A stretch of DNA of 64,000 nt from Hygrophila difformis (Eukaryota > Streptophyta > Magnoliopsida > Lamiales > Acanthaceae): NCBI GenBank assembly GCA_030278955.1, contig JAOANR010000003.1, forward strand, positions 60,505,628 through 60,569,627, given 5' to 3'. Shown piece after piece: positions 12,841 to 62,187 of this stretch. The notes beneath the pieces are model-generated. The model worked only from the letters and a program-made list of their open reading frames with translations. It was not told where the DNA came from and made no database searches. Made by a program: the position numbers and the translations under genes. The stretch's first letter is position 1. Each line of letters begins with the position of its first letter.

Positions 12841-12843
12841 ATT

Positions 12844-13213: not shown

Positions 13214-13231
13214 CTAAATACTACCTAATTA

Positions 13232-15119: not shown

Positions 15120-15164
15120 GTTGCTTAATAGGGTTTTCTTTGGATAGTAATCAGTTTGATTAAC

Positions 15165-16317: not shown

Positions 16318-16371
<54 letters not shown>

Positions 16372-16880: not shown

Positions 16881-16884
16881 CACT

Positions 16885-24890: not shown

Positions 24891-24900
24891 TATATTTATA
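24891..24900 (-). promoter_or_regulatory. TATA box in the 3' LTR
   Basis: The minus strand reads CTCTATAAATATATCC. If used, transcription would start near 24865. This would put about 1.85 kb of the LTR in U3 and about 4 kb in R-U5. Confidence 0.6.
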
Positions 24901-25329
24901 GAGGTGGAAAATTAGCCCTAGGCCCATTAGGCCCATCTGGTCGCCAAACAACTGCTTTGTCGCGGAATAGGGACAAAACACTTTTTGGCTCCAAGATGGC
25001 GCCCAGGAGGGGCCGGGACTTGAGGTCCAGGAGGAAAAGACGAAACTCCTTGTGCCTGCGGGACTCCAGCTCCTGGGACCATGCAGCAGATTTGACATGT
25101 GAGTATTGAATTAATTGAGGTCACGTGACCTGCTGTCTCGGAGGGGCTGTCTCTGTCGCGGAGAGGCTGTCGCGGTCGAGGTCCATTTTGTCGCGGAACC
25201 ATGTTCCGCGACAAACTTTTGTGGCTTGATTCTCCTCTCACAGTCTCGGAATAATTTTGGGCGCGGAGCATTTTTCTGGGCGCGGAGCACTTTTCTGGGC
25301 GCGATGTGTTACTCCGCGACAGGGATTAA

Positions 25330-26130
25330 TTCTCTTCTCTCTCTTCTCACTTTTGATTCTCGATTTCTCTTCTTTCTTCTTTTTATTTTCTGTTCGTCTC
25401 TTTCCTCGTTCATTCCCAGTTTTCCATTTCTTGCTTCTTTCTTCTTCCTCTTTCTTCTTGTTTCTTTTCTCCATTGCTTCTTCTTTCGATTTCTTCTTCT
25501 TTCTTCTTCATCCACCCTTCCTGATTTCTTTTCTTCTCTTCCTCCATTTCCGTCTCTCTTCCCTCTTCTTCTTTTTGTTCCTTCTCTGTTTTCTGAAATC
25601 GGGCTTGTGAATGGTGGGCGGCGGCTGTGGTGCGAGCGATCGGAGTTGAAGGGGCGACAGGACGGAGATGTAGAAAACAGCCGCGGTGGCCGGAGCGGCG
25701 GCGGAGCTCGGTGGATTTGGAGACTGGAGGTGCGGTGGCATGTGGCTCTCACAGCCGTGGCCGCGGCGGATCTGGGCTCTCGGATCTGTGGGGAAGGCGA
25801 CCGGAGCTGCTGTCGGAGTTGGAAGGGGATGGTGGTGATGATGGTGGTTCGTCGGAGGTTAGTGATGGTGGTGGTGAGGATGAGTTGTGGCCGGAGGCGG
25901 CGGGAATGGAAGTGGATGGTCGGAAATGGAGCGGATTGATGAGGAAGGAGTTGTTGGAAATGGATGATGGATGCGGTGGCCGCGGCGGTGGTTCTCGGTG
26001 GTGGCGATGGGATGATGGTGGTGCTCGCGGACGAGGGGGCTGAGATGGGTTGCCGGAGGGGTGGTCGGCGGCGGCGGCGAAAGCGGCGGCGGCGGCAGCT
26101 AAGGTTAGGGTTAGGGTTAGGATTAGGGTA
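25330..26130. repeat. Pyrimidine tract and GC-rich block in the 3' LTR
   Basis: 25330-25595 is almost pure C/T on the plus strand. 25600-26100 is strongly GC-rich, with GGCGG/GGTGG repetition unlike the AT-rich surroundings, followed by four TTAGGG-like units (26103-26128). Open frames here are low-complexity translations. The block sits in U3 and may be captured host DNA; no source is recognised. Confidence 0.55.
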
Positions 26131-26722
26131 TGGGGTGATTGGGCTTTAGGGAATGTGGGCTTGACACTTGGGCCAAGTGGTTTGGGCTTGTGGAGTGATT
26201 GAATTGGGCCAATGTGATTTTGTGGTGTTGGGCCAATAGCACTCTTGGACTTAATAAAATCTTTGGGCCAAATTACCTGTAATTAATTTAAATTAACAGT
26301 AATTAGTGGACCATTTAATTCTTAATTATAGCTTAAAACAGAAATAGAAATAAACAAACATAAAAATTAAAAATATATACATCAAAATATAAAATAATAT
26401 AAATATAATATTTATTCCACTTGATTATTTGGTTTGTGATCCATTTAATGAACCCGTGTTCCACCAAATAGACAATACCGAACCAAAATTAATCAAGTGT
26501 AGGATTTTTAATATTTTTATCATGTTTTTGGAGTTTTTAATATAAAAGTAATAAAATAACAATATTTTTGTATTTTTCAATACCAGCTTATTATTTATAC
26601 AAACTTGCATATATCTGTCAAATTCGACTGCTTTCTTATGTAAATAAGACCGGAATGCGATCAGATGTCCGTATTAGACACGGAAATAGATTGAAAATAA
26701 TGGTCAATTTTGGCCATTATCA

Positions 26723-29649: not shown

Positions 29650-32394
29650 TGAAACTTTTGACAAATTTCATTAACACGAGTATTTTTCAATAAAATATAT
29701 CAGGATTGGATTTATTAAATGAAGGAGTTATGATTTATGGAATGGGTTTAAGGATATATTAAGAGTATTACTCTTTATTACTCATGTGAGGGGCTTTAAT
29801 TTCAAATGGCAATGTGGTCCTCTCTGCCATGAAACTTCTGACAAATCTCATGATACAACCGGGATAAATTGACCTTCAGCCTGTCACACTGAGGGTCCCC
29901 GGCATATGTGCCATGATACTTCTCATGATTTCATGTCATGAGATTCCCTGCCATGAAACTTTCGGCAGATTCCCACTACATGAGTATTTTCTGAAAATCA
30001 CATTTTTATTTACTCGTGTTAAGAAACTGTGCCCCCGAAAGCGCACGGAGTCAAAAATTGCAGTAATTTATAGTAAGTACCGGATCGTTCACTGGAGGAT
30101 GTGCGATAGAAGCAGGGCCCACGCCATTTACTAAGATTTTCCACTCGGTTACTCGATTCAAGTTTGAGAAATGACTAACAACTACTTGACATAATTTAAA
30201 CTGAGTTATGAAAGCAATCAAAATAAAGCAGATAAAATTATTCTAGAAAGCGAATTAAATTTAATCTAAGAAAGCAATAAAATTATTCTAAGAAAGCGAT
30301 TAAAATTATTCTAAGAAAGCAGATTTAAAATGAGACAGAAGGGACAGGAAGAAAATAATAAAAATTGGACAAGATTCAGATGAAACACAGTTAAACTTCC
30401 ATTTTAATACACAGATCTTTGTTTGGGATAATCCTTTCAGTTAGCTAATTCTCATGCTCTCTATACCATGTTCCCTTTAACAGACAGGTACTTACAGTAA
30501 GAGTTTACATGCTCTTAAGGCAACAAATTCTAAGATACCACAGACTCACAACTGCTCCCGTCAGAGCGTGTCATTTATCTGTGGTGGACAAGCAACACCT
30601 GACAAATCATTTATTGAAGTGTCAAGTACTGCTATCATTCCCCCATGTCACACCCAAAGATTCTAATTAAGCCCTGAACTATCCCTTAACTCTCAGTCCT
30701 AGTAGCAGTTACACAACTCTCAATACAACCGAGTAACCTCTAACGAAAGCAGTTAAAAGAAAGCGTTAAAGAAAGCATTTAAAATCCTATCACTCGGAAG
30801 TTTTAAAAGTCTGACCCTGGTAGTAAAAGAAAGCCCCCAGTCAGAATGACCGGATGTGGATCAAGAATTCCCTATTCTCGGTGAACCGCTCGCAGTGTTC
30901 ACTTCTCGTCGGGTGGTTATGAGATACAAACTAATGAAACGAACTAATAAATTAGTTCGTTCCGGATGCACTCACTCAGGACTCAAAAATAGGCTTTGGC
31001 AGAAGAGGATAGCAGTTGAAAGAATACTCAACCCTACCTTAGAAAATAACCAAGGCCTGGATGTTGTTCCTCTAGTATTATCTGTCACACCTTATCGGAA
31101 TCCAAGTGGAATCTGACCCAGTGCAATATTTAATACAAGATTTCCAACAAACAGCAATTTTGGAAAATAATAAATCTGAAAATCATTCCCTATCAGGTAC
31201 TAGACTCTCAATTAAAACACAGATCCTTTCAGTCTAGGTGAGACCTAATCGCTGACTCTGCTTCTAATTTCCCAAAATCAACCCCCAGTCGGATATGAAT
31301 TAGTCATAACTGTCGAATTTATCCCTTACTCAGATCCGGATTTTATAAAGGAGTTTTTGTTGGAAATTTATTATGAAACATCTGATCAAGATTCCTGTGT
31401 CCAAGGGAAGGATCCCAAAATAATATTGACCACAATATCTACATAATAATATCATGCATAATTTTATAAAGAAGTGTAAAATTAAGTAACCCAAAATATA
31501 AAGTGGGTTTAGACAGAAGTTGATACACAGAGATGAAATAGCCGGAGATGAGAAGAATTTTGGCTAAAGAGAATGCCAGAAATAACTGGGGTGATCTGGA
31601 CTGCAAACATCTGCTATCCAGTTCCCAATTATTCCAGATGGAAAGATTTTAGACAGCAGAATAATCTTAAATGACAGTGGTCGCTATCATTCAGACCCCT
31701 ACTGTCTGTGAATCAGAGAAAAACCTACATGTTCTTTCACTGTCTTAATTACTAGACAACAATGACCTATGTCGTCTAATGTTGGCACAGTTTGAGATTC
31801 GGGTTTGAAATTAAGATAAAGAAAGAGAAACTGTATCCGGATAGGAGTCAGCTGAGCAGCTATTATAATCCCGGATGGACGAACCGCCAAGGCGTCCACC
31901 GACCACTATCCGGACCATGCAAAATAACATCTAATAATTAATATACAGAATACGAGCTAGTTATCCGTGTGGGAATACCCGCCAACATTAATCTGATATA
32001 TTCCTTATTAGCTGTTTCACACAACACGGGTAAAGACAAAATAAATAAAATAAAAGAAAAATATTTTTGGTTCATCTTGCATGAGAGACATTGGTTTCTC
32101 ATGCAAGGTATGGAAATGATTCCATAATTACTCTTTATGTCTAAATAATCACTCATTCCGTAATTAATTAATTACAGTCCAGATTATATACTTAGATCAT
32201 TAGAGTTTAATTTCTTTTTGTAGAAGAATCTTTTAATGGGGAATTGAACAAAGTTCTTTATATCAAATTAATCATGGGTTGAGATCATTGGATTTCAACC
32301 TCAAAATATTAATATAAAGGTCCAATTAATTAATGGAGTGAGATGAAGAATAAAAATTTGGCAAAAGTGCCACTTTGTCGCGATGCAGAGTTCG

Positions 32395-32910
32395 TGTCGC
32401 GGAGCGTGGCTCCGCGACAAAGGTTTCGCGACAAAGGGGTGGGAAATAAGAGAAATGGGATTTTGAAAATTAGGGTTTGCTTTGTCGCTTAAGCAAAAAT
32501 TTTGTCGCGGAACATGGTTTCGCGACAAAGAGGCATAGCGACAAAGAGGGTTGAAAATTGGTAAGGACATAATTCCTGGTCGCGGAACAAGGATTTTGTC
32601 GCGGTACGTGGTTCCGCGACAAGGGTTCCGCGCCAGAGTCCTCCCAGAATAAAATTACAAGAATTTGGGTCCTTGGTCGCTAATCAAGGATTTTGTCGCG
32701 GAACGTGGTTCCGCGACAAGAGTTGCACCGCGACCAAGGGGTTTCAAAATTAATGGCAATGCATAATTTTCTGTCTCGGAATAAGATTTTGTCGCGGAAC
32801 GTGGTTCCGCGACAAGGGTGCTCCGCGACAAAAGCCCTGCAGACAAAATGCAAGAATTTGGTCCTCTGTCGCTAAACAGGGGTTTTGTCGCGGAACGTGG
32901 CTCCGCGACA
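32395..32910 (-). repeat. Tandem hairpin array in the 5' LTR
   Basis: It has the same six ~96-bp units as in the 3' LTR, starting at 32395, 32503, 32597, 32694, 32790 and 32886. The isolated seventh hairpin is at 33951-33975. Confidence 0.85.
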
Positions 32911-33652
32911 AGAGTGTATGGCGACAAAGGGTTTTAAAATATTTTATAAAAATTTTGGCAGCATAACCCCTTATATTGCATTACATGGGTGTGCGTTGTG
33001 ATCCGTGGGATCACAACGGGGAAATTACATTGCAACCCGTGGGGTTACAATGTGGTGCAATACAATATAGGGGATGCAATTTTAAATAAAAATGCATAAA
33101 CACTTTAACACTAGCCCTTTTAGATCTAATGCACTAGAGAGAGAAAATAAAAAGCAACAATACTACCTAATACTAAAAAGAACAAGAGCAGAATAATAAA
33201 AATAAAAGAAATGGCTAAAACTAGTACAAGAAGCAAAAATACAAACTAACTATGCTAACACTAAAAATAAAGATAAAACTAAAATAAAATAAAACCTACA
33301 TTAAATCTATCAAGGGTACATATCAAGTGTTTATGCACTTATTAAAATAAGGAAAGCAATAAAACCTAACTACAATACCAAAACATGGTTCAAAATACAC
33401 CCATTGATTTAAGTGTTTGAAACCCACAAACTACAAAATATAAAACTGGAAAAACAAGAAATGAACACTAGCTACACTATTTTATTACAAAGCATAAATT
33501 AAAGCTAAGCTAAAGTCTATTACTACATTGCATAAAATTAAAATAGACTAAACTACCTATCTAATAAATTCTTGGAGAGCACAGTGGTGCCTCCAAGAAC
33601 AGTAAAACTAAACTAAGTGTAGCTAGGTTACTGTTCAAGGGGGGTGGGAGGA

Positions 33653-33662
33653 TATATTTATA
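33653..33662 (-). promoter_or_regulatory. TATA box in the 5' LTR
   Basis: TATAAATATA on the minus strand. This is the copy expected to start genomic RNA synthesis, near 33627. Confidence 0.6.
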
Positions 33663-35488
33663 GAGGTGGAAAATTAGCCCTAGGCCCATTAGGCCCATCT
33701 GGTCGCCAAACAACTGCTTTGTCGCGGAATAGGGACAAAACACTTTTTGGCTCCAAGATGGCGCCCAGGAGGGGCCGGGACTTGAGGTCCAGGAGGAAAA
33801 GACGAAACTCCTTGTGCCTGCGGGACTCCAGCTCCTGGGACCATGCAGCAGATTTGACATGTGAGTATTGAATTAATTGAGGTCACGTGACCTGCTGTCT
33901 CGGAGGGGCTGTCTCTGTCGCGGAGAGGCTGTCGCGGTCGAGGTCCATTTTGTCGCGGAACCATGTTCCGCGACAAACTTTTGTGGCTTGATTCTCCTCT
34001 CACAGTCTCGGAATAATTTTGGGCGCGGAGCATTTTTCTGGGCGCGGAGCACTTTTCTGGGCGCGATGTGTTACTCCGCGACAGGGATTAATTCTCTTCT
34101 CTCTCTTCTCACTTTTGATTCTCGATTTCTCTTCTTTCTTCTTTTTATTTTCTGTTCGTCTCTTTCCTCGTTCATTCCCAGTTTTCCATTTCTTGCTTCT
34201 TTCTTCTTCCTCTTTCTTCTTGTTTCTTTTCTCCATTGCTTCTTCTTTCGATTTCTTCTTCTTTCTTCTTCATCCACCCTTCCTGATTTCTTTTCTTCTC
34301 TTCCTCCATTTCCGTCTCTCTTCCCTCTTCTTCTTTTTGTTCCTTCTCTGTTTTCTGAAATCGGGCTTGTGAATGGTGGGCGGCGGCTGTGGTGCGAGCG
34401 ATCGGAGTTGAAGGGGCGACAGGACGGAGATGTAGAAAACAGCCGCGGTGGCCGGAGCGGCGGCGGAGCTCGGTGGATTTGGAGACTGGAGGTGCGGTGG
34501 CATGTGGCTCTCACAGCCGTGGCCGCGGCGGATCTGGGCTCTCGGATCTGTGGGGAAGGCGACCGGAGCTGCTGTCGGAGTTGGAAGGGGATGGTGGTGA
34601 TGATGGTGGTTCGTCGGAGGTTAGTGATGGTGGTGGTGAGGATGAGTTGTGGCCGGAGGCGGCGGGAATGGAAGTGGATGGTCGGAAATGGAGCGGATTG
34701 ATGAGGAAGGAGTTGTTGGAAATGGATGATGGATGCGGTGGCCGCGGCGGTGGTTCTCGGTGGTGGCGATGGGATGATGGTGGTGCTCGCGGACGAGGGG
34801 GCTGAGATGGGTTGCCGGAGGGGTGGTCGGCGGCGGCGGCGAAAGCGGCGGCGGCGGCAGCTAAGGTTAGGGTTAGGGTTAGGATTAGGGTATGGGGTGA
34901 TTGGGCTTTAGGGAATGTGGGCTTGACACTTGGGCCAAGTGGTTTGGGCTTGTGGAGTGATTGAATTGGGCCAATGTGATTTTGTGGTGTTGGGCCAATA
35001 GCACTCTTGGACTTAATAAAATCTTTGGGCCAAATTACCTGTAATTAATTTAAATTAACAGTAATTAGTGGACCATTTAATTCTTAATTATAGCTTAAAA
35101 CAGAAATAGAAATAAACAAACATAAAAATTAAAAATATATACATCAAAATATAAAATAATATAAATATAATATTTATTCCACTTGATTATTTGGTTTGTG
35201 ATCCATTTAATGAACCCGTGTTCCACCAAATAGACAATACCGAACCAAAATTAATCAAGTGTAGGATTTTTAATATTTTTATCATGTTTTTGGAGTTTTT
35301 AATATAAAAGTAATAAAATAACAATATTTTTGTATTTTTCAATACCAGCTTATTATTTATACAAACTTGCATATATCTGTCAAATTCGACTGCTTTCTTA
35401 TGTAAATAAGACCGGAATGCGATCAGATGTCCGTATTAGACACGGAAATAGATTGAAAATAATGGTCAATTTGGCCATTATCACCTCC

Positions 35489-44307: not shown

Positions 44308-45011
44308 AATGAAAGAGAGGAAATGAATTTTTTAGGCCATTACAAGGCACCATTTCCACATTTGGGCCATTATGAAATCAATTTCCAATTTTAGGCCATT
44401 AGAAACCATCTTTGACCAAATTAAGGCCATTTAGACTATTTTGACTTTTTCAAACTTCAATTAACCCTACCAACTTTTACTTTATTTCATTTTGACCCCA
44501 GATTTTAGTTTCTTCATTATCATTAGTCCAATATCAGCCCATCATGCTTCCGATAATTAAATTAAGCACTAAACTTCATACCTTGGCTTTGACCGCCTTG
44601 CTGCCGGGTTTCCTAAGCTCCGGGATTTTACGGACTTCCTCCAACCACGCAGCCGCGACCGATGGTTCACCGATTCTTGGCTCCTTCAGCAACAAACAGC
44701 ACAGTCCTATTTCGTTTCCTACCTTAGGACGTATCAAGATATGAATAAAGGGTTTTAATTATATTATCGGGATATTTGAGATATTTGGAAGCCTGGATTT
44801 TACTGAAGAAATATTAAAAATATTATTTAAACATAATTTCCCCTAACGGAGAAGACAGACACTTAGTTCCTCATGGTGGATACAAGACTCTTGGGGGAAT
44901 ACCCCATACTTTTACAGACTTGAAAGGAAATATGCAGAAAGAGAAATATTACAAATATTTTGAAGAGTTGGGAGGAATTTTTCGATGCCTTCCATCTGCT
45001 TCAAACTCCTT

Positions 45012-45019
45012 TATTTATA
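45012..45019 (-). promoter_or_regulatory. Viral TATA box (35S-type promoter)
   Basis: The minus strand reads GCCTATAAATAAAGG. It follows the transactivator ORF by about 250 bp, the position of the pregenomic RNA promoter in this virus family. Confidence 0.75.
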
Positions 45020-45071
45020 GGCGCCCGCGGACTTCAGCCCCGGATTCCAATCTTCCTCTAAATCCTTGTGA

Positions 45072-45088
45072 CGTCACTGCGTTCGTCA
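45072..45088 (-). promoter_or_regulatory. as-1-like enhancer element
   Basis: The minus strand reads TGACGAACGCAGTGACG: two TGACG motifs separated by 7 bp, the same spacing as in the CaMV 35S as-1 element bound by TGA bZIP factors. The second TGACG is part of the palindrome TGACGTCA. It lies about 53 bp upstream of the TATA box. Confidence 0.7.
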
Positions 45089-45268
45089 CTTGGCCTTAAT
45101 TTCCACCGGCTACATTATTGTCCTTTTTTGAATTATTGCGTTAGGTGGCTTTTGTCAACTTTCCACCTTCTCTTGTCGGCCACTTTCTGCCAGCTACTCT
45201 GCCCTTCTTTGTCGGCTTTTAATAATGAGTGCTGCCGACACCTCTCTTTCTTTTACATCCAGCTAATC

Positions 45269-46561
45269 TTACTTTGGCTTGTGAAAGTTTTTTGGACGTT
45301 TCTTCCCTTTGTCCTGTTCGGGTCCGGATTTTTTCTGGGTTACCCGGATCTTTGTACCGAATAGGGGTTTCTCCTGTTCTGCACAATATGGGCATATGTG
45401 GTTATCCCATTGGCCAACATGCATCATGTTACAAGCCTTTTTTCTGGTAGACTCGGTTGCTGGCAACTTGTTTTCCCAGATGAGTAACCTCTTCTTTTCG
45501 AATGAGGTTTCCGCAAACTCTGTGCTTTTCCCTGTTAAAGAATTAACCAGAAACGATCCATTTAAATTGTTTGAGAATATTTTAAACGGATATTTAACCT
45601 TTTCCATCTCGGTGAGACAGACCCAGAATCCCCATGCTCGTCGGGTGGAGATTTCATCTTCGCTGATTGAAGATACCAATGGTGCCTTCTCATCCATAGA
45701 CTTCACTCTGTTGAAGGCAATCATATCAGGTCTCTGTAATTTAATAAATTGAAAGACCGGATAAGAACCTTTTCCGACTATTTCTGGTGCCGCTGAAATG
45801 AACTTAAGCTCCAGAATATCTCCTCTTTGCAGGTGCGGGTTATTCTGCCATGATTCGTGCACCGCACTACTTATCCATCCCGGAAGTTTTTCGATTTCCG
45901 GAAACCCTGGTGATGTAGTATGAACAGATGCTAATGCTCCAAAGTCATACCACTTTCGAACCTCTTCTGGTTTCGATCCTTCGAGCATCCATACCCTGTT
46001 GTATCTCCCGGATGTCTCGATTACTGTTTTGCTAGGGTTAATTCCCTTTTTGGAAACCAGTTGTTCCCATTTTCCTTGGTACTCCAGCCAAGCAGTAGAT
46101 AGGACCTTCTCGTCTGAATTAACCTTAGAGGTGCCTGTCATTGGCCTAAGGTTAATTTCTTCCTCTTTTACCCCAGAGGCAGTGGGTTGACTTGAGCTTT
46201 CGGAAATGTGACTTTCCTCTTGCTCAACATTTTTGTCGGTATCCGACAATGGTTCCTTTGAAGCAGTGCTTGAATCTGCTTCTTCATATGTGACCACTTT
46301 AGCTTTTTGGGCACATTTCTCTTTGTTTACCAGGGAAGTTGACGCTTTCCTGATTGGCTCTAATACTGTTTCCCATAGTGCTGTCATTGCTATATGGGAG
46401 GTTCGTATATTGTTGCGGACCATGTCCACATCGCTCTGTTGTATTTGGCCAGCTGCTCGTGCATTGATCTCGAGCTGTCCAAAATGCTTCGATAGCTCCT
46501 CTAGGTTTTCTCTGAGGTGCCTGAATCTCGTAATGATGGAATCAGCTTCAAATGCTTCCAT
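45269..46561 (-). CDS. Pararetrovirus transactivator/viroplasmin-like protein
   Basis: A 430-codon intact frame, last in the viral order. It has a helical N-terminus, an acidic/polar linker (about residues 95-155), a central conserved region with YNRVWMLEG and KYPFKIFSNN, and a Cys/His cluster CPYC near residue 395 followed by a Lys-rich tail. Position after the polymerase and before the promoter, length and the central region fit the translational transactivator (ORF VI type), which allows reinitiation on polycistronic RNA. It overlaps the polymerase end by 14 nt. Confidence 0.75.
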   Translation of the reverse strand: MEAFEADSIITRFRHLRENLEELSKHFGQLEINARAAGQIQQSDVDMVRNNIRTSHIAMTALWETVLEPIRKASTSLVNKEKCAQKAKVVTYEEADSSTASKEPLSDTDKNVEQEESHISESSSQPTASGVKEEEINLRPMTGTSKVNSDEKVLSTAWLEYQGKWEQLVSKKGINPSKTVIETSGRYNRVWMLEGSKPEEVRKWYDFGALASVHTTSPGFPEIEKLPGWISSAVHESWQNNPHLQRGDILELKFISAAPEIVGKGSYPVFQFIKLQRPDMIAFNRVKSMDEKAPLVSSISEDEISTRRAWGFWVCLTEMEKVKYPFKIFSNNLNGSFLVNSLTGKSTEFAETSFEKKRLLIWENKLPATESTRKKACNMMHVGQWDNHICPYCAEQEKPLFGTKIRVTQKKSGPEQDKGKKRPKNFHKPK

Positions 46562-48609
46562 CTCTCGTTAGGAAATCTGCAAGAACATTTTCATGAGATT
46601 TTATAACATCAATATCATAAGTATAATATTGACATTCAGCTTGCCATCTGATAATACGAGCTTTTTCAATTTTTGATTCAAGTTTATTTTTTAAAAAAGC
46701 CCTAACATTAGTATTATCAACTTTTAATACAAATTTCTTTGCAAGTAAGAATAAATGCCATTTTTTAAATGTTTTCCATACTGCAAAGAATTCCTTTTCG
46801 TTAATATGCCAAAGTTTGGCTTGTTGTTCAGTGAACAACCCTCCTGTGTATCTACAAGGTTCTTGACCCGTAGTTGTTTTTCTCATGAGCACTCCTGCCC
46901 ATCGAAAATCATTGGCGTCTGTGTAGACTACCAGCTCATCCTCATCCTGAGGTATCGCGAGTTTTGGCAAGCTATTGCAGACTTGCTTTAGTTCACGAAT
47001 TCTCTTGGTATGGATTTCTTCCCATTTCCATCTAGAGCTTTCAGTCTCTTTCAGGAGTGGTCTAAAATCCTTTCTATATTTTGCAAGGTCTTTAATAAAC
47101 ATACCCGCAAAATTTACAACTCCTAAGAAACTCTGAAGTTGTTTCTTGTCTTTTAATGTATCAGGAAAATTGCGGATTTTCTCCACAATGTGTTCCTGTA
47201 ACTCTATTCCTGCTTCATCAATTTGAACTCCTAAGAATTCAATTTTGTTAGCAGCGATAGTGGCCTTTTTCTCAGAGAGAACTAGACCTTCCCTGTGACA
47301 TGCATCAGAAAATATTTCAAGATGTTTAATATGCTCTTTAATATTTCGAGATTCAATCAGAATGTCATCTATGTAGACGAACATAAACTCTAGATAATCC
47401 TTAAATAGATTATCCATCTTTCTTTGGAATATCTGAGGGGCATTAGAAAGCCCCATTGGCATAACATTCCAAATATATTGTCCTTGTGGGGTGGAGAATG
47501 CTGTGAATTTCTTCGACTCATTCTCCATCTTAATCTGATAGAAACCAGATTTGCAATCAAATTTAGAAAACACTTTAGCACCTTTGATGCAATCAATTAA
47601 GTGTTCTCTACTCGGAATGTAATAACCATCAAACTGTATTATTTTGTTAATACCTTGATAGTTTATTACCAACCTGGGTTTACCTCTCTTTATTTCACCG
47701 TGGTTTCTTACCAAGAATCCAGGGCTACTATAAGCTGAGACTCCAGGCTCGATGAGTTTAAGATCAATATGCTCCTTGATAATTTGTTGCATATCTTTCT
47801 TATCCTGCATATTCATTAAGATGGGTTTGTATCGAACATACTCATATTTATATTGTTCTTTTACCTGTAGAGTAGCTTCGATCTTGTTTTTATCCCACCA
47901 TGCCAGATGATCCTCGTTAAAGTTTCTCTGGATAAGTCTTTTGACATTTTCGAGGGACAATTTAGTTTCACCATCAATGTCTAGTGAAGTTATATTTAAT
48001 GACTTCATTTCCTGCATTGCTTCTTTGAGGTTTATAATTTCCTCAATAGAAGCTTCATCAAATCCTTGCTGTCTAAAATACAACAAAGCCTTACCAAACT
48101 TTCTTTTATCCTGCATTTTTGGATGGGTTAGTTTGGCATCATTATCACCACGTTTGCTGCGAAATAATATAGGCATTAACATATTGAATGCCTTTTCCCT
48201 GCGCAACACCTGTATCTCATTTCCACAACTTGTGGTAAATATTAACAAATTTCTTTTGTTATCTTGAACATATTTTGTAAAGGATTGTATAAAATTGTTC
48301 CCTAACAAAATATCTGCTCCTGTGTCATGAAAGTAAATAGGAGGCGTTTTTACCTTATACCAAGGTGTACCAAATGCTCCTCCAATCATGATATTGGCTT
48401 GTCGAATACCCTTATTTAGTACTAAGATTTTTTTGGGAAAAATCTCTTCCTGCAATAATGGGTAATGATTCCATAGCTTCGCTAGGGAAAACTCCTGGTT
48501 TTGCCGTGCAAATACCTGATCCTGAATCAATATAAGCTGCGAAATATTCTGACTTATATTCTTCATATATTATCCCTACTGAGATATAAATGGAGAATGG
48601 ACTTGTCAT
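46548..48609 (-). pseudogene. Pararetrovirus polymerase (protease-RT-RNase H), one frame break
   Basis: The start at 48609 overlaps the movement-protein stop in ATGA (48606-48609). The protease active-site motif DSGSG appears in this first frame. The reading changes frame near 48480 and then stays open to 46548. The second frame has the protease C-terminal ILLGNNF region, RT with GFYQIKMEN, MPMGLSNAP and catalytic YIDD, then RNase H (YTDAN, ADFLTRDG). No other lesion was seen. Family members cleave their polyprotein and reverse-transcribe the pregenomic RNA; this copy is interrupted. Confidence 0.88.
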
Positions 48610-49853
48610 TTAATTCTGATGGTGTGACCCTTCAGATTAAATTCTATACCATTATCCTTTCTTACCCATGGTTTATGATTTTCGAGAAAACTTAATCCCA
48701 AAATCATAACCCCATTGTCTTTTCCGGCGGTGCCTAAGACTCTGATCTCGTGTCCTGCAATTTCAATTGTTCCTTCATAGGTTCCAATTGATGGCTGCTG
48801 CAAGTAGTATAAGTCATCACATGGAAAACGGTTAATCTTTTCAGTGATGTCGAATATTACTCGTATTTCTTTCCATCCTTCAGGGCATTTTATCTTTATA
48901 TTATCTAACCAAATGGATTGAGGAGTTAGATCTTTGATGAACTCCTTCCCTTTATATGCCATAATTCTGTCTTCCGAAAAAGACATACGGCTTGCGTACT
49001 CAATTCTAGCACTCGTTGATCTGTCTAGAATTGGATGATCTCTTATTTGTATGTCTACTCCTCCTAACCTTGGAATCTGGGTAGGATTTGGAGTCATGAC
49101 TTTAGCAAATTCCTTGAAAATTCTAGGAATTTCTATATATTCTTTCCTAAGAAATAAGTCAGAATGATGACTATTGGAAAGTGCATAAGAGATTCTATAA
49201 GTTATAGAATATGGCCTGTTCCCTTCTTTCATCAGATCTTTTCTTTTAAAATCCTGATGAAGAGTTAGAACTCTACTAAAATCTTGGTCAGCTAAGTTAT
49301 AGGAAATTCTGGGATGTATGTCTAACATTAACTTCCCAGCATATAAATTTCCTACCATAGTTCCAAGAAGACCATCTCTAAGGTTATTGATTCTTCTATC
49401 AGTGACTGATAGATGCAATTCAGAATCAATGCCTTCTTTAAAGGTTGCCTTAATTACTACTTCAATGGCTCCTATGTGGATCCATTTCATAGTAATGGCA
49501 ATTTCCTCCTTCATTCTGCTTAATTCCTCAAGAATTTCTTCTTTAGGAATTAATTGCATATCCATAACATTACAAGTAAGTTCCATAGGAATTGCAAACT
49601 CACCTGCACTTACCTTGTAGATGATGTTATGTCTTCTCTGGTTGAGTCCCATTTGGTTAAGAACTCGTCCAATCCCGCCAATTCTGAATCCGTCATATGG
49701 GCTGAGGTTGGAATCTTGTCGCATTATTCTTTCCATGGTTCGATTCGAGATCGTCATCCTTGAAAAGAATCCAGACAGGTTTTCAGTGGTCTGAATCCTG
49801 TCTTCTTCAGTCAGACTCGGTTGAAGATCCATCTGAATATGAGTCCGAGTCAC
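48606..49853 (-). CDS. Pararetrovirus movement protein (30K superfamily-like)
   Basis: 415 codons, intact. The middle contains the Caulimoviridae movement-protein pattern (KATFKEGIDSELHLSVTDRR, then the short motif GTMVGNLYAGKL). This family forms tubules through plasmodesmata. It overlaps the coat-protein ORF by 47 nt upstream and the polymerase by 4 nt (ATGA) downstream. The C-terminal 100 residues include GVMILGLSFLENH, which resembles a protease-like fold; its role is unclear. Confidence 0.8.
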   Translation of the reverse strand: MTRTHIQMDLQPSLTEEDRIQTTENLSGFFSRMTISNRTMERIMRQDSNLSPYDGFRIGGIGRVLNQMGLNQRRHNIIYKVSAGEFAIPMELTCNVMDMQLIPKEEILEELSRMKEEIAITMKWIHIGAIEVVIKATFKEGIDSELHLSVTDRRINNLRDGLLGTMVGNLYAGKLMLDIHPRISYNLADQDFSRVLTLHQDFKRKDLMKEGNRPYSITYRISYALSNSHHSDLFLRKEYIEIPRIFKEFAKVMTPNPTQIPRLGGVDIQIRDHPILDRSTSARIEYASRMSFSEDRIMAYKGKEFIKDLTPQSIWLDNIKIKCPEGWKEIRVIFDITEKINRFPCDDLYYLQQPSIGTYEGTIEIAGHEIRVLGTAGKDNGVMILGLSFLENHKPWVRKDNGIEFNLKGHTIRIK

Positions 49854-51255
49854 TTCTTAATTCTTCCTCGTAGATGCTTTCATCCGAGGGGATGTCCTCA
49901 AACTGATAGACTGGTACCAGCTTTCCATGGTAGACTGCTTCCACGATATCCTCCGTGGCTTCGTACATTCGTACCTCACGATTCTGAGGGCAATCGGGTG
50001 AGATATGACCTCTGGCTCCACACTTCCAACAGTTGCAGTCCTTGAAACTTTCGTTGGCTCGGGTATGGGCTCGTCTGAATGTTCTCTTGGACGTCGTTCT
50101 CCCCGTGCTCCTTGCTGCTGAGCTAGTTGAACCTTGGGATGAACTCTTCGTCGTTCCCGTTCTTTGTCCAGTTTTGTATGATCTGGCCTTGCTCTTGGAC
50201 CACCATGCTCTTCTTCTTCGGAATGGAGGTCTTCTGAAACTCCTACTGTATGAGCCCCGACTCTTCTTCTTTTTCCTCTTTTCTCCTGATTCTCCTATAA
50301 TTGTTGGAAAATCGTTATTTTCACAGCAAAGAGGAGTTCTTTTTATTTTACCTCTTAGTCTCTTGATGTTCTTTTGGGCTGCTGCCTGTTGACGCCATTC
50401 TCTGAGCTTATCCTTTAAGAAGGACATTCTTCGAGCTATTGAGTCCACTGTACCAGGGGGTACTGTGTACGATTGGATCAACATTTCTCTCCATGGGCTG
50501 CAGATCTTTGCAAAGAACATGGGACATGCTACTTCGGCTGTCATTTCACTCCGAAAATAGTATTTACGAAACCAGTAGATATATTCGTCTACTGCGCAAA
50601 TACTTCTTAACTCCATACCCAACAGTGCTTGGGTATAGACTTTGATTTTTTCTGTTCTCTGTTCTTCAAAATAACCATCTCCTACAAAATGGGTTTTGAA
50701 TAAGAGGCCAAACCTTTCGCAGATTGTGCTTTTGGATTCTCCTTCGAGTATTTGCTCCTTTAAAGCAGCCGTGGAGTTTTTCCAGCCCAGCTTTGCCGAT
50801 CCTTCGAGACTCAGCTCTATTAATCTGACAAAGTTTTCTTTATCGAGTTCCAGGGTGGTTGATGCAATCTTCATTGAAGCTACCCATTCATCGATCAGGT
50901 CTTCGATGTTTCGGAAGTCGATAACGTCGAGGTTTAGTGTTATGCCATATGGATTTAATGGTTGTAACATCGTCTTGGCCCACGGTGTGGATTCTGGTGC
51001 TCTACTTGGGTTCCGTCCTGGGTTTCGTCTTGCATTGAGATGCACCTCAGGATACCTGTTCATGTAGAAGTCTGTACTTTCTCTCATTGGAACATCAGGC
51101 GGTCCATCGTGGGTCACGTTGGATCCTGATCCTTCCGCATAACCCAATTGAAGGACTTCATTGGGTTTTACATTAACCAGATCCATAATCCCCAATTGGG
51201 AAAATGATTCTGCTAATTCTTGTAGATCTGATAGATCTGCCCTGGAAACACTCAT
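49807..51255 (-). CDS. Pararetrovirus coat protein
   Basis: 482 codons, intact. A helical capsid core (YIYWFRKYYFRSEMTAE, KLREWRQQAAAQ) is followed by a very basic Arg/Lys/Ser segment. Then comes the zinc knuckle CWKCGARGHISPDC (C-x2-C-x4-H-x4-C) and an acidic Ser/Asp/Glu-rich C-terminus. This arrangement is typical of the family's coat protein. The start overlaps the stop of the upstream small ORF in ATGA (51252-51255). Confidence 0.85.
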   Translation of the reverse strand: MSVSRADLSDLQELAESFSQLGIMDLVNVKPNEVLQLGYAEGSGSNVTHDGPPDVPMRESTDFYMNRYPEVHLNARRNPGRNPSRAPESTPWAKTMLQPLNPYGITLNLDVIDFRNIEDLIDEWVASMKIASTTLELDKENFVRLIELSLEGSAKLGWKNSTAALKEQILEGESKSTICERFGLLFKTHFVGDGYFEEQRTEKIKVYTQALLGMELRSICAVDEYIYWFRKYYFRSEMTAEVACPMFFAKICSPWREMLIQSYTVPPGTVDSIARRMSFLKDKLREWRQQAAAQKNIKRLRGKIKRTPLCCENNDFPTIIGESGEKRKKKKSRGSYSRSFRRPPFRRRRAWWSKSKARSYKTGQRTGTTKSSSQGSTSSAARSTGRTTSKRTFRRAHTRANESFKDCNCWKCGARGHISPDCPQNREVRMYEATEDIVEAVYHGKLVPVYQFEDIPSDESIYEEELRSDSDSYSDGSSTESD

Positions 51256-51653
51256 TCGACTGTTTTCAGGAGATTGATCATAAGCTCTTCTTGTGATTTC
51301 TGCTTTGGAACCATAGTTGCTTTACCCTTTTGATGTAAAGCTTGTACTGGTCCGAATGCATCTCTAATATTGGCTTGGTTATTCTTGGAAGATCCAAGAA
51401 TATCCTTCTGCCTTTTCTTGATATCCGAAATGTCAAATTTCAGATTCAAAATTTCTTTCTTTAGACCATATGTTGTCTGATTCAAGTTATCTATTTTTCC
51501 AGGTATAATTAATACCCGGTTACCAAAATTTTGAATCGTCTTTTGGATTTCTCTTAAGTCTTTTGATAACTTAGAGCTATCCGGATCAATTTCTTTCCAG
51601 TCCGTTCCTCTCATTTTTAGGAAAGAAACTGATTTTGATAATATCTTGTCCAT
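51252..51653 (-). CDS. Small pararetrovirus ORF, coiled-coil protein
   Basis: 133 codons, first ORF after the primer site. It is Lys/Leu/Ile-rich with heptad-like spacing (LREIQKTIQNFGNRV, LKKEILNLKFDISDIKK), and ends in a basic stretch. Size, coiled coil and basic C-terminus recall virion-associated proteins; the identity is inferred. Translation appears coupled to the coat protein through ATGA. Confidence 0.6.
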   Translation of the reverse strand: MDKILSKSVSFLKMRGTDWKEIDPDSSKLSKDLREIQKTIQNFGNRVLIIPGKIDNLNQTTYGLKKEILNLKFDISDIKKRQKDILGSSKNNQANIRDAFGPVQALHQKGKATMVPKQKSQEELMINLLKTVE

Positions 51654-51814
51654 TGGACAAGTTCAAGAAATTCCTTTGGAATTTTCTATTTTTTATTTCC
51701 AAAATTTGGAAATAACTTGTGGGTTTCAAATTAATTGAATTCATTAAATAATTAAATCTTCTCCATTAAGAAATAAAATATTATAAATAATATAATTAAT
51801 ATGTTCTTCAATAA

Positions 51815-51833
51815 AACCTAGGCTCTGATACCA
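51815..51833 (-). promoter_or_regulatory. Viral primer binding site, tRNA-iMet type
   Basis: The minus strand reads TGGTATCAGAGCCTAGGTT, matching the 3' end complement of initiator tRNA-Met used by all Caulimoviridae. It lies 160 nt before the first ORF. Confidence 0.9.
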
Positions 51834-52156
51834 ATTTTCAAGCGCATTGGGTGTCATTTATATAGTGAAAACTTAAGTATATTGACAAAGGACTAAAGTA
51901 AATAAAGTCAAACTTTCTTGGGGTTTTAATGAAAGAAAGGAAAAGTTGTTGGGAATTAATTAATTTTCAAATTGGTCCTTATGGCTTAATTTCATTCAAC
52001 ATGTGTTTGTAATGGCCTAATTCTGGAAATTCAACTTATAATGGCCTAAAAGTGGAATAGACTCCTTGTAATGGCCCTTTTTATTACTTTTCCCAATGAA
52101 AGAACCATTTTGATTGCAATTAGTAAATGAATTACTGTCAAATTTAAGGTTTGAAG

Positions 52157-57058: not shown

Positions 57059-57346
57059 TGAGGAACAAGAGAGAAAGTGGAAGAGAGAGTGCGCACTGTT
57101 TCATTGCTTAACAGAATTTGTTACAGGAAAATCAATTGGGAAAAGGAACCCCTATCTAGAGATATAGGCAGATTACACATAATATGGGCTACAATAAGAA
57201 TGGGCTGCACAAAACATAAGAGGCCCAAGAAGGAACTGCAACTAACAGGCCCAATGCTCCTTCACACGCGAGTAGCAGCACCAGCTGTGTTTGTGTTGTC
57301 CTGCTTCGTCGTGCATGAATTGGGAGAGTACCCAATATGTCCAACA
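57059..57346 (-). repeat. 3' LTR of the copia element
   Basis: On the minus strand: TGTTGGACATATTGGG...CTTGTTCCTCA. The RNase H frame reads slightly into it. Confidence 0.93.
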
Positions 57347-60300
57347 TCCCCCCGCAAGCTGAAGTATTCCACAGCTTCAGCTTGGAGCAGAAATGATGAA
57401 AGTGGCGAGGAGTTAGACCTTTTGTAAACATGTCAGCAAGTTGGTGGGTGGTTGGAACAAAGATTGGATCTATGAGAACCTGCTGAAAATGATCTCGAAC
57501 AAAGTGGCAGCCAACGTCCAGATGTTTAGTGCGTTCATGGTGGATGGCGTTCTTCACAAGCTGGATGGCAGACATGTTGTCACAGTGAAGAGGGAAAGGA
57601 GTAGGCAAGGGTAGCTCCAACTCCTTGAAGAGAGAACCTACCCAAAGCAATTCAGCAGCAGTCACACCCAAGCTCCTGTACTCAACCTCGGTAGAGCTCC
57701 TGGACACAGCATCTTGTTTCTTTGTTTTCCAAGAGACAAGGGAGTCTCCAAGAAAAATGCAATAACATGTCAATGAGCGCCTGGTAGTAGGACAATTTCC
57801 CCAATCGGCATCACAATAGCCTTTTAACTCAAGAGGGAGCCCGAAAGGATAGTGAAGTCCAATCTGATGAGTGTTTTTGATGTATTGGAGAACTTGGATC
57901 ACTCCATTCCAATGGTGGACAGTGGGATGGTGCATGTGTTGGCTCAACTGCTGCACACTAAAGCTGATGTTAGGTCTGGAGAAGCCTAAGTAGAGCAGTT
58001 TGCCAACAAGCCTGCGGAATAGTTGTGGTTGATCGAATAGAGCACCAGAGGTGTCATATTGGTGATGAGGAAGGCAGGGTACATAAACCTTGGAGGTGTC
58101 AGGAAGCTGGATTTCAGAGACAACATCCAAGGCATATTTGTGTTGGCTAACAGAGAACCCTGATGAGGATCGAGTGATCTCAAGACCAAGGAAGTATGAG
58201 GCATCCCCAAGATCCTTAATGGTGAATTGACTATGCAGGCTCTTCTTGATGTCTGAAATAGCATCAACATCATCACCTGTGATCAAGATATCATCCACAT
58301 AGACCACCAAGAGGATGATACCAGCACATGTGAACTTAAAGAATACACATGGATCTGAGTAGGTGCATTTGAATCCTGAGGAGGAGAGAAAGGATTTGAG
58401 GGCAGCATACCACTGACGAGGGGCTTGTTTCAAGCCATATAAGGATTTCTTTAATTTGCACACTTGACCTGAGGAAGAGGGGAGACCCTGAGGACACATC
58501 ATGTAGATCTCCTCATCCAGTTTACCATGGAGAAATGCATTGTTTATATCCAATTGGGAAAGACTCCATCGATGAGAAGCTGCAATAGCAATAACAAGCC
58601 TGACACTAATAGCTTTGGCAACAGGGGCAAATATCTCGAAGAAATCTTTTCCAAACTTTTGGTGAAAGCCTTTTGCCACAAGCCGAGCTTTGTGCTTGTT
58701 CACTGTGCCATCCGGATTACACTTAACCCTGAAGATCCATTTACACCCGATGGGTTTCTTCCCAGCTGGTAAATGCACTAAGTCCCAGGTACCATTTTTT
58801 TTCTAAGGCAGGTAACTCAGCTTGGATGGCTTGATCCCAATGAGGGATGCCATGAGCCTGAGCAAAAGTGGAAGGTACCTGAGCATTGTCATCAATGGAT
58901 GTACAGATGTAGTCCTTGTACTTTTCTGGTCTCTTGATAGTTCTCTTAGGTCTAGTAGGAGCCACAGGTGCTGCAGTAGGCTCTCTGATGCCAAAGTGGG
59001 AATCAGAGGAAGGAGGATTCTCCACAGGGGATGGAAAATCAGAGGTTGAATTGTGGGGAGACAATTCAACAGAGGGAGAAGTACCATATCTCTCAGTGGG
59101 AGAGACAGGAGAAGTGACATCAAGAGTTTGGCTCACTGATCTAGGTGAGATCAGAGGAGAGTGCTCTATACCATGATGAGCAGTGGGCTCATCAGGAGAG
59201 TTGGCACTATGGTGAGTAGCAGTAGGCTGCTCACAGATTTCTTGAGAGTTTTGAAGGGAAGAAACAGGTAAGGGAAGAAAGGTTGGTAAGTCAGTCGAAG
59301 GAACTGAAATGGAAGGAGAAGAAGCAGAATAAGGGATGTGGGAAGAGTGTTTTGGATCAAAAGGGAAGACATTGTCATGAAAGACTACATCCCTAGAGAC
59401 AACAACCTTTTTGCTATCTAGGACAAGGACTTTGTATCCTTTCTTCCCTGATGCCATGCCCAGAAAAACACCCTTCAAGCCTCTAGCATCAAGTTTGCCT
59501 GTAGGATGAGGAATTTTGGCATAGCACAGGCAACCAAAGCAATGAAGAGAGGAAATGTCAGGTTTTTGACCAAGAAGAACTTCACTGGGAGATTTCCATT
59601 CAAGGATGGAAGTAGGAAGCCTATTTATGAGGTGAGCTGCAAAAAGCATGGCATCACCCCAAAAGGATTTTGGGACAGAGGAAGTGAGAAGGAGATTTCT
59701 AGCCACTTGGATTAAGTGTTTATGTTTTCTCTCAACCCGACCATTTTGCTGGGGTGTGTATATGCAAGAGGTTTGATGCACAATCCCAAGAGAGGTAAAG
59801 AGGTTTAGGCAAGACTTGTTGCAAAATTCACTGCCATTATCAGTCCTAATTACCTTGACCATTTTATTGAAATGAGTTTTAACATAGGTAAAGAAGGCAG
59901 ACAGAAGACCTGGGGTTGCAGATTTATGATGCAACAAATATAACCAAGTTGCTCTAGAGCAATCATCAACAATAGTCAAGATGTATTTATAATTTGATCT
60001 ATCACCAACAGAGAAGGGTCCCCAGAGATCACTATGTATTAAATCAAAACATGAGGTAGCATGAGAATCACTGTGGGAAAAGACAGTCTGTGTATTTTGG
60101 AGATAGAGCAGACATCACAAGGTAAATGATCTTTGTTTTCAGTACTGAATCCCAATTTAGACATGACCAATGGGGAGGGGTGACCAAGTATGTTATGCCA
60201 AATATCAAAGCTATTGGACTTATCTACAGTAGCAAATGCAGGAAAACAATGTTGAGTAATGTTTCTTTCATGGCAGAAGGAGTAGAGGTTGTGCAGGAGT

Positions 60301-61797
60301 GTCCCCTTAAGAAGGATCTTCTTAGAGCTCAGGTCCTGCAAAAGGCATGAGGTTGGATCAAAAATAGCCAAGCATTTGAGCTCTCTAGTGAGCTGACTAA
60401 TGGAAAGAAGATTTAATATCAGACCAGGAACGAACAACACATTTGGAACTGTTAGATCTTTCAACAATCTAACTGATCCAATGTGAGTAGGTGTTTTAAT
60501 GGAGCCATCTGGCAGAAAAATGGACTTGTTGTGTTTAAACGGCTGAGGGTCAATTAAGCAAGTAAGGTCGGCACAGAGATAACTACTGGCACCTGAGTCA
60601 AGCAACCAAGATCCTTTAAGAAAATCAGAGTCAGAAGTACTACCTGCCAATTCGAATATTTCTCTGTCAAAGACTCCTCCAGCAAAGTCAATGGGATTGG
60701 CAAGATTGGCAGACTGATGTTTGGCAAATTCATCAAGTTTTGCTTCTATTTTGGAGAGAATCCTCACCTCCAAGTCCTCACCACTGACATGTTTAGGAGC
60801 TCCAGCTACTGATTTGCCTTTCCTTTTCTCTGCTAAGGCCTTGTACCAATCAGGCACTACTCCTGAAACCATGAAGCAATTGGCTCTACTGTGACCACTC
60901 TTTTTGCAATGGTCACAGTAGGCGTTTTTGTTAGCCAATTGGTAGCACTTCTCCCTTGTGTGTCCAGTCTTCTTACAATAGGTGCAGATGACCCCGTTTC
61001 CACGACCACTGCTCTTGTCAGCTACTCCTTTATCCACCGTTGCAAGAGCAAAGTTAGATGAGTTGGAGCTGTCACCAGAGGCTCCTTGGCTCCCTTTTTG
61101 TTCAATACCACAGAGCATGCCATGGGCTCGACTAACATGAGGAAGAGGATCCATGAGAAGGATCTGATTGCTAACATGTTCAAACTCATCATTCACACCC
61201 ATTAAGAATTGCACCAGCAGTTCATATTCCTCCGAATCTTTGAGAGCCTTAAGTGTTTCTGAGCTACAGGTTTTGGGAAAAGGTTTCAGTGCTTTGAGAG
61301 CATGCCACTGGGATTTGAGATCATTGTAGTAGCTAGTTATAGATCTATTTCCTTGGGTGAGATTAACAAGTTTCCGTTGAAGCATAATGACCTGAGGTCC
61401 ATTGGTTTGGCCATAGCAGTTTTCAAGCTCATTCCAAAGACTAAATGATGTTTCAGCATAAAGATATTGACAGGTGATATCAGGCGTCAAAGAATTCTGT
61501 AACCAAGTCAGGACCATGCAATCTACTTGAACCCATTCATCATACAATGGATCATCAGCAGCTGGACAGGGAAAAGTACCTTCAATGAACTTGATTTTGG
61601 CTTTAATTCGCAGGGTATTCCGAACAGCTATGCGCCATGAGTTCCAATTAGTGCCATCGAACAGAACTGGTGCGAGCTTTAGGTGAGGCTGATCAGCGAC
61701 TGAGAGGTTTAGCTCCGGGGGGACGAGGAGCAGGAGGCTGAGGTAGTGGAGTTTCATTTGAGGTTTGTGATGGTGTTTCTGTGGTAACAGACGCCAT
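57189..61797 (-). pseudogene. Copia gag-pol polyprotein, frame-broken
   Basis: The probable start is the ATG at 61797 (MASVTTETPSQ). A frame change at a C6 run near 61715 follows. Gag (61690-60039) has FDGTNWNSWRIAVRN, and two CCHC knuckles, CTYCKKTGHTREKC and CDHCKKSGHSRANC. Protease: WLLDSGASSYLC. GAG-pre-integrase: WHNILGHPSP with CDVC. A second frame change near 60085 is followed by integrase with TIVDDCSR, RTDNGSEF and NGRVERKHKHL (D-D-E). A third near 58800, in an A8 run, leads into RT (YVDDILITGDD) and RNase H (GYCDADWGNCPTTRRS, SRSSTEVEYRSL, HCDNMSAIQL). Without these slips the element would be coding-competent. Confidence 0.92.
57347..57357 (-). promoter_or_regulatory. Polypurine tract of the copia element
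   Basis: The minus strand reads GCGGGGGGA immediately before the 3' LTR. Confidence 0.85.
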
Positions 61798-61880
61798 CAA
61801 AAATTGAGGTTGATGAGCTGATTGGATAAAATCAGCTCAGATATGCGAGAATCAAGAGTGCGGAGTGTGAGATTCAGGAG

Positions 61881-61899
61881 CGAAACCGCTCTGATACCA
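61881..61899 (-). promoter_or_regulatory. Copia primer binding site, tRNA-iMet type
   Basis: The minus strand reads TGGTATCAGAGCGGTTTCG next to the 5' LTR end. Confidence 0.92.
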
Positions 61900-62187
61900 T
61901 GAGGAACAAGAGAGAAAGTGGAAGAGAGAGTGCGCACTGTTTCATTGCTTAACAGAATTTGTTACAGGAAAATTAATTGGGAAAAGGAACCCCTATCTAG
62001 AGATATAGGCAGATTACACATAATATGGGCTACAATAAGAATGGGCTGCACAAAACATAAGAGGCCCAAGAAGGAACTGCAACTAACAGGCCCAATGCTC
62101 CTTCACACGCGAGTAGCAGCACCAGCTGTGTTTGTGTTGTCCTGCTTCGTCGTGCATGAATTGGGAGAGTACCCAATATGTCCAACA
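61900..62187 (-). repeat. 5' LTR of the copia element
   Basis: 288 bp, partner of 57059-57346; expected to contain the promoter. I did not identify a convincing TATA box. Confidence 0.93.

What the first reader, a model, noticed from the sequence alone, without database searches (positions are those of the whole stretch)
44308..52103. A nearly complete pararetrovirus genome sits inside Mutator-like termini with a 9-bp target duplication
Seen: perfect aatgaaaga on both outer sides, inverted ends sharing GGCCATTACAAGG and about 180 bp more, and viral sequence filling everything between the arms. Known: Mutator-like elements make 9-bp duplications, and Caulimoviridae integrants make none of their own. 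Inference: either the virus landed in a small MULE, or a MULE mobilised a viral genome. The second case would be a DNA-transposon route for spreading pararetroviral copies.
Basis: partly seen in the sequence, partly recalled or inferred. Interest (0 to 1): 0.9.

Follow-up and report, generated by a model that had tools for sequence, protein, structure and literature searches.

The report
Plant virus moving as a transposon
A nearly complete plant pararetrovirus sits between the ends of a cut-and-paste-type transposon and has spread as one unit to hundreds of places in its host genome, apparently while its viral genes were still working, which would be a new way for such viruses to enter chromosomes.

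Summary
Confirmed: a caulimovirid genome lies in a 7,778-bp element whose inverted ends align at 122 of 168 bases, flanked by a perfect 9-bp duplication. The host genome (915 Mb) shows mobilisation. The left end occurs 309 times, the right end 312 times (controls 0); 62 of 86 perfect right ends pair with a perfect left end in proper orientation (wrong-orientation control 1), 37 of them about 7.8 kb apart. Of 16 copies with both ends read, the window's included, 15 have a perfect 9-bp duplication of their own and one has 8 of 9. The same virus body also occurs with a related end pair (one copy, 9 bp) and an unrelated one (131 left ends; 10 bp in both copies read). Variants shared among copies show purifying selection on reverse transcriptase and movement protein, which passive cargo does not predict. 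Promoter, leader hairpin and primer site are split between the two ends and would work only if the ends were joined. Best reading: a pararetrovirus with Mutator-like termini in its leader hairpin, alternating between a circular reverse-transcribing form and transposase-mediated integration. Against it: no circle junction in the assembly, and no partner transposase identified.

The parts
44308..44316 (.). left copy of 9-bp target duplication, aatgaaaga
52095..52103 (.). right copy of 9-bp target duplication, aatgaaaga
44317..44500 (+). left terminal inverted repeat (starts GAGGAAATGA; repeated GGCCATT motifs)
   Evidence: boundary the same in 8 of 8 copies; 309 ends in genome at <=2 mismatches
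51890..52094 (-). right terminal inverted repeat (starts GGGAAAAGTAAT here, GGGGAAAGTAAT in 10 of the 12 copies)
   Evidence: 312 ends in genome at <=2 mismatches
44481..44486 (-). AATAAA in viral sense, inside the left arm; possible poly(A) signal of the pregenomic RNA (motif recalled, function not tested)
44790..44855 (-). 5' arm of a second, inner inverted repeat; read as base of the pregenomic leader hairpin
   Evidence: 53/68, E 3e-9
51757..51825 (-). 3' arm of the inner inverted repeat, at the opposite end of the integrated element
44863..44907 (-). leader short ORF (14 codons; a 3-codon one, 44863-44874, shares its stop) ending 7 nt before the stem
45012..45076 (-). promoter-like motifs TGACGTCA (45069-45076) and TATAAATA (45012-45019), pointing outward through the left arm (motifs recalled)
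45269..46567 (-). 432-aa ORF after pol; transactivator (TAV)-like by position only, no Pfam match over cut-off
46548..48569 (-). reverse transcriptase and RNase H part of pol (673 aa open)
   Evidence: RVT_1 3.7e-35, RT_RNaseH 2.4e-17
48412..48609 (-). N-terminal part of pol with Peptidase_A3; frame break to the RT part in this copy
48606..49856 (-). movement protein (416 aa)
   Evidence: PF01107 7.5e-31
49807..51321 (-). coat protein ORF (by position) with CCHC zinc knuckle (504 aa)
51252..51662 (-). first ORF (136 aa), no Pfam family
51821..51833 (-). TGGTATCAGAGCC, initiator-tRNA-Met primer binding site (motif recalled)

Best explanation
It is a virus-transposon hybrid: a caulimovirid genome (leader, ORF1, coat protein, movement protein, pol, TAV-like ORF) whose two ends are Mutator-like terminal inverted repeats. 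SHOWN: the about 7.8-kb unit has inserted at many sites with precise ends and target duplications of their own, as a DNA transposon does. SHOWN: variants shared among copies carry the mark of purifying selection in RT-RNase H and the movement protein (private variants also in the coat protein), so working viral proteins were needed during the spread. SHOWN: the same body occurs with a second, unrelated pair of ends. INFERRED: a MULE transposase acts in trans, since no ORF of the element matched one. INFERRED: between insertions the element exists as a circle with the two TIRs abutted at the tip of the pregenomic leader hairpin. Only then would the promoter, leader stem and primer site, which the integrated copy splits between its two ends, form one terminally redundant pregenomic RNA for reverse transcription. 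Integration and excision by the transposase at the TIRs would alternate with viral replication.
For: Same boundary and virus inside in 8 of 8 copies. Of 20 copies, 14 perfect 9-bp duplications and one of 8/9; for 5 the right end was not reached. 309 left and 312 right ends, controls 0. 62 of 86 perfect right ends on C1-C8 paired in the correct orientation against 1 in the wrong one, 37 of the 62 at 7.70-7.85 kb, 11 between 3 and 7.7 kb; three internally deleted copies were read and have perfect duplications. Selection, neutral N:S about 2.8: variants shared by at least 2 copies are MP 1 N: 8 S (15 rows, window included) and RT-RNase H 10 N: 19 S (32 rows); a context-matched permutation expects 7.0 and 20.8 N, reached in 0 of 5,000 draws each. 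Coat protein private variants 37 N of 76, expected 54.9. Among RT sites other than C>T/G>A, 16 of 78 site pairs fail the four-gamete test. Leader anatomy: short ORF ending 7 nt before a stem whose other arm lies at the far end of the element; a short ORF ending in front of a leader stem is the layout described for caulimovirids (PMC5902531, passages). Second end type at the same distance (2.93-3.08 kb) from RT: 9 of 17 type-C left ends on contigs C1-C2, with 10-bp duplications in the 2 of 4 copies where the right end was read.
Against: No abutted right|left junction (0-30 bp spacer, exact ends) exists in the 915-Mb assembly, so no direct trace of a circle or concatemer. No partner transposase was found: single members of the two commonest MULE transposase families lack such ends within 4 kb; other families were not examined. 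ORF1 shows no constraint (private omega 0.90), and all 20 other copies differ from the window by frame-changing indels there. Coat protein and TAV-like shared variants are not significantly short of N (p 0.07 and 0.08; 0.065 and 0.062). The four-gamete result can also come from gene conversion or repeated mutation. No relative was confirmed in the viral contig collection. All but four of the copies fetched were picked by identity of their left or right arm, so young copies are over-represented. Many copies are broken: only 19 of 32 RT pieces are free of stops and frameshifts relative to the window.
Confidence: 0.6

Rival explanations
1. Passive cargo: a MULE captured an integrated virus once (as Pack-MULEs capture genes), and a transposase acting in trans copied the package by DNA transposition alone. 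Viral functions played no part.
For: Ends, target duplications and internal deletions are all ordinary for MULEs (the deletion habit is recalled); no circle junction in the assembly; a virus-free element with related ends and a 9-bp duplication lies next to one copy (L002:695-1472).
Against: Purifying selection on MP and RT in shared variants; four-gamete failures among copies; a second unrelated end type on the same body.
Confidence: 0.27
2. The ends are not MULE ends but an inverted repeat of the virus itself, recognised by some other recombinase.
For: No pair of these perfect ends shorter than 2.7 kb among 62; no transposase was identified; leader hairpins are native to caulimovirids (PMC5902531, passages).
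Against: 9-bp (type A, one type B copy) and 10-bp (type C) duplications and long TIRs fit Mutator-like elements (7-12 bp per PMC10741241, passage); a virus-free 778-bp element with related ends and a 9-bp duplication; type-C ends are unrelated to type A yet do the same.
Confidence: 0.1
3. A single virus landed in a MULE at this locus; no mobilisation.
For: Only the anatomy of the window.
Against: Many copies with precise ends and duplications of their own.
Confidence: 0.01
4. Assembly artefact or segmental duplication of one locus.
For: Repeats can be mis-assembled (general knowledge; no call).
Against: In the copies read, flanks differ and each has its own duplication; copies differ by about 0.9% in RT.
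Confidence: 0.01

Closest known systems
Teratorn (piggyBac-herpesvirus fusion of medaka; PMC5601938, passages read)
   Same: virus genome bounded by DNA-transposon inverted repeats and target duplications; multiple copies; viral genes largely intact among copies
   Different: Teratorn is a 180-kb herpesvirus fusion with its own transposase; here a 7.8-kb reverse-transcribing plant virus, no transposase found inside, hundreds of copies, two unrelated end types
Endogenous caulimovirids / EPRVs (PMC8256270, passages)
   Same: same kind of viral genes; integration in AT-rich DNA
   Different: EPRVs are described as entering by illegitimate recombination with host repair; here precise ends, TIRs and 9- or 10-bp duplications
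Pack-MULE / non-autonomous MULE (PMC10741241, passages)
   Same: long TIRs, duplications within 7-12 bp, foreign sequence carried between the arms, no transposase found inside
   Different: cargo is a near-complete virus with genes under purifying selection, not gene fragments
Cavemovirus / Solendovirus (gene order recalled; TAV homologues in both genera per PMC5902531)
   Same: coat protein before movement protein before pol before TAV-like ORF
   Different: genus placement not tested here; the passages read mention no transposon ends in them

Membership tests
Caulimoviridae | movement protein of the MP family | tested here: met
   PF01107 E 7.5e-31
Caulimoviridae | pol with aspartic protease, RT and RNase H, no integrase | tested here: met
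   Peptidase_A3 in two pieces (21.9 bits over and 20.7 bits under the 21.3 cut-off), RVT_1, RT_RNaseH; no integrase family among the 8 ORFs scanned at E <= 0.01
Caulimoviridae | coat protein with CCHC zinc knuckle | tested here: met
   PF00098, 20.9 bits against cut-off 20.8
Caulimoviridae | tRNA-Met primer site and leader with short ORF before a stem | tested here: met
   motif and spacing; layout described in PMC5902531 (passages); in the integrated copy the parts lie at opposite ends
Caulimoviridae | episomal circular genome and virions | not testable with these tools
   no reads or RNA at hand; no circle junction in the assembly
Mutator-like transposable element | target duplication of 7-12 bp (PMC10741241) | tested here: met
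   type A: perfect 9 bp in 15 of 16 copies with both ends read, window included, the other 8/9; type B: 9 bp in 1 of 1 with both ends read; type C: 10 bp in 2 of 2 with both ends read, of 4 tried
Mutator-like transposable element | long terminal inverted repeats | tested here: met
   168-bp alignment, 73%; type B 176 bp 74%, type C 123 bp 72%
Mutator-like transposable element | MULE transposase inside (autonomous) or an autonomous partner with the same ends | tested here: inconclusive
   none among the 8 ORFs scanned; 2,395 candidate PF10551 sites in the genome, 150 scored, but one member each of the two commonest families lacks these ends within 4 kb
Pack-MULE | carries captured host gene fragments | tested here: not met
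   cargo is viral; a GC-rich piece at about 44590-44700 is of unknown origin and was not searched for a host source
Teratorn-like virus-transposon fusion | virus genome bounded by transposon ends and duplications, multiplied as one unit | tested here: met
Teratorn-like virus-transposon fusion | own transposase gene | tested here: not met
   (8 ORFs scanned)

The most novel reading that the evidence does not exclude
A plant pararetrovirus has made Mutator-like TIRs the tip of its pregenomic leader hairpin. It lives two lives, as a reverse-transcribing (perhaps cell-to-cell moving) circle and as a DNA transposon that integrates and leaves through those ends, and it has exchanged its ends for an unrelated pair at least once.
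Probability: 0.5. Interest if true: 0.97.

Novelty: new variant of a known kind. Interest (0 to 1): 0.92.

Why it matters
Pararetroviruses are described as lacking active integration and entering plant genomes through host repair (PMC8256270, passages). Here such a virus is bounded by DNA-transposon ends and its unit has inserted precisely many times, which gives a concrete integration route that can be tested. It crosses the line between Class I (reverse-transcribing) and Class II (cut-and-paste) mobility, and is a plant counterpart to Teratorn. Two unrelated end pairs on one virus body suggest that such fusions recur. Movement-protein relatives are abundant under Sesamum names, so the system may extend to sesame and its relatives; whether those copies have transposon ends was not tested.

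Tried and rejected
Virus-into-MULE at a single locus: rejected. Assembly duplication: rejected by differing flanks and duplications in the copies read. A suspected head-to-tail pair on C5 (and one on C1), which would have shown a circle junction, was fetched and is not a tandem; a genome-wide search for the exact junction gave 0. Partner transposase: one member each of the 353-aa and 530-aa families, 8 kb each, showed no such ends; other families were not examined. A search of viral contigs with the movement protein confirmed nothing. The host could not be named; a paper on Fittonia was checked and does not fit (18 chromosome pairs). In an early N/S count over all held loci some genomic copies were counted twice; it was repeated with one locus per copy, and only that is used. 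The count of type-B ends did not complete. The search with the virus-free element's end was asked once, not answered, and not repeated.

Papers: search listings. No paper joining pararetroviruses to MULE mobilisation appeared in the listings (one search listed 10 of 655 papers); the library lacks most subscription journals and all preprints. Abstract and passages seen: PMC12440569. Passages only: PMC10741241, PMC12422009, PMC5902531, PMC8256270, PMC5601938.
Full report
What is there. The element runs from 44317 to 52094 and is flanked by aatgaaaga on both sides. Its ends align inverted over 168 positions at 73%, E 4e-20. The genes read on the minus strand from the right end: a 136-aa ORF, a coat protein ORF with a zinc knuckle, a movement protein, pol, and a 432-aa ORF in the TAV position with no Pfam match over cut-off. 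Pol is broken in this copy by a frame break inside the protease; all 12 other copies compared differ from the window there by a frame-changing length difference, so the break looks private.

It is mobile. The window lies in a 915-Mb genome of 246 contigs that can be searched. The 40 best left-arm matches, of 1,183 first-look candidates, are listed at 100% identity. The first 8 were fetched: 8 of 8 start at the window's boundary, with unrelated flanks and 97.6-99.1% identity inward over about 1,715 bases. Right ends were sought for 20 copies: 12 were found about 7.8 kb away. Of these 11 have a perfect 9-bp duplication of their own and 1 has 8 of 9. Three of the other 8 have internal deletions and perfect duplications. 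In the remaining 5 the right end was not reached. The window's and the 14 perfect duplications together are 92% A+T, against 61% for the window.

Numbers. With at most 2 mismatches the left 31-mer occurs 139+170 times and the right 31-mer 172+140 times; reversed-pattern controls are 0. Of 86 perfect right ends on contigs C1-C8, 62 have a perfect left end within 40 kb in the proper orientation, and 1 in the wrong orientation. Of the 62, 37 span 7.70-7.85 kb, 12 are shorter (shortest 2,699 bp) and 13 longer. The usual moving unit is thus the whole virus with both ends. An RT 31-mer occurs 863 times at <=2 mismatches, far more than the type-A ends.

Other ends on the same body. Four RT loci not flanked by listed type-A ends were read at both expected end positions. 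One has type-A left-end sequence after all, with the right end displaced. Two have left ends of a related type B; in one of these both ends were read, with a 9-bp duplication (TACTTATAA). One has ends of type C, whose outer 150 bases show no significant similarity to A or B (E 0.03 or worse); an inner 27-base match to A reaches E 0.003. Type-C left ends occur 131 times. On contigs C1 and C2, 9 of 17 of them lie 2.93-3.08 kb from an RT match, the place where type-A ends lie, and no RT match there has both types (90 RT matches with 0-1 mismatch: 33 with perfect type-A ends, 9 with type C, 48 unassigned). The other 8 type-C ends had no such RT match nearby. Two of four type-C copies tried have perfect 10-bp duplications; in the other two the right end was not in the piece fetched. 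Next to one viral copy sits a 778-bp virus-free element with related ends and its own 9-bp duplication.

Selection. With one locus per genomic copy, variants shared by at least two copies are 1 N: 8 S in the movement protein (15 rows, window included), 10 N: 19 S in RT-RNase H (32), 4 N: 5 S in the coat protein (20) and 5 N: 6 S in the TAV-like ORF (12), against a neutral N:S of about 2.7-2.8. A permutation that keeps the base and its methylation context expects 7.0, 20.8, 6.5 and 7.8 N; draws as low as observed were 0 of 5,000 for the first two, and fractions of 0.065 and 0.062 for the last two. Private variants are also short of N in the movement protein, RT and coat protein, but not in the TAV-like ORF or ORF1. 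Sites other than C>T and G>A still fail the four-gamete test in 16 of 78 pairs, which needs recombination, gene conversion or repeated mutation. Passive cargo does not predict the N shortage.

Layout. In viral sense the promoter motifs (45076-45012) point outward through the left arm. A short ORF ends 7 nt before the 5' arm of an inner inverted repeat (44855-44790); the other arm (51825-51757) and the tRNA-Met site (51833-51821) are at the opposite end. A short ORF in front of a leader stem is the shunt layout reported across caulimovirid genera (PMC5902531, passages). In the integrated copy these parts are 7 kb apart and in the wrong order for a pregenomic RNA. Joined end to end they would be in the right order, with the TIRs at the hairpin tip. 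This is inference: no junction was found in the assembly.

Relatives and age. A search with the movement protein gave 507 proteins at E <= 0.001; of the 120 listed, 119 carry Sesamum names, at 54-86% identity, and the best (88%) is an unnamed record. The host is therefore probably a relative of sesame, but it is not named. RT pieces of 13 copies differ by 0.94% on average. At a recalled plant rate of 7e-9 per site per year that is about 0.7 million years between copies; selection and reverse transcription would change this figure.

Verdict. Mobilisation of the virus as a unit by transposon-type insertion is close to certain. Assignment to Mutator-like elements rests on TIRs and duplication length, not on a transposase. 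Dependence on viral functions is well supported for RT and the movement protein. The alternating circle model is the best single account but lacks direct proof.

Noticed in passing
window 20888-26722 and 29650-35483: direct duplication of 5.8 kb at 99.98% identity, 8,762 bases apart; a very recent duplication or an assembly duplication
   Followed up: partly
window 57059-62187: LTR retrotransposon-like element with 288-bp LTRs (99.65% identical, TG...CA) and a 5-bp flanking repeat CTTCT
   Followed up: partly
window about 44590-44700: GC-rich, coding-looking piece in the viral leader between the inner stem and the left arm, with a possible splice donor (by eye); perhaps captured host sequence
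   Followed up: no
L002:695-1472; L072:1206-1379; L053:1102-1275: virus-free elements with ends related to the right arm (74-78%) in or beside viral copies; the first has a perfect 9-bp duplication
   Followed up: partly
G000, MULE transposase sites: two large families of MULE transposase ORFs (353 aa and about 530-600 aa), many with identical scores among the 150 scored; suggests recently active MULEs in this host
   Followed up: partly
window 9844, 42648, 56490 and 12075-17056, 39041: a diverged dispersed repeat family in several inverted and direct copies
   Followed up: no
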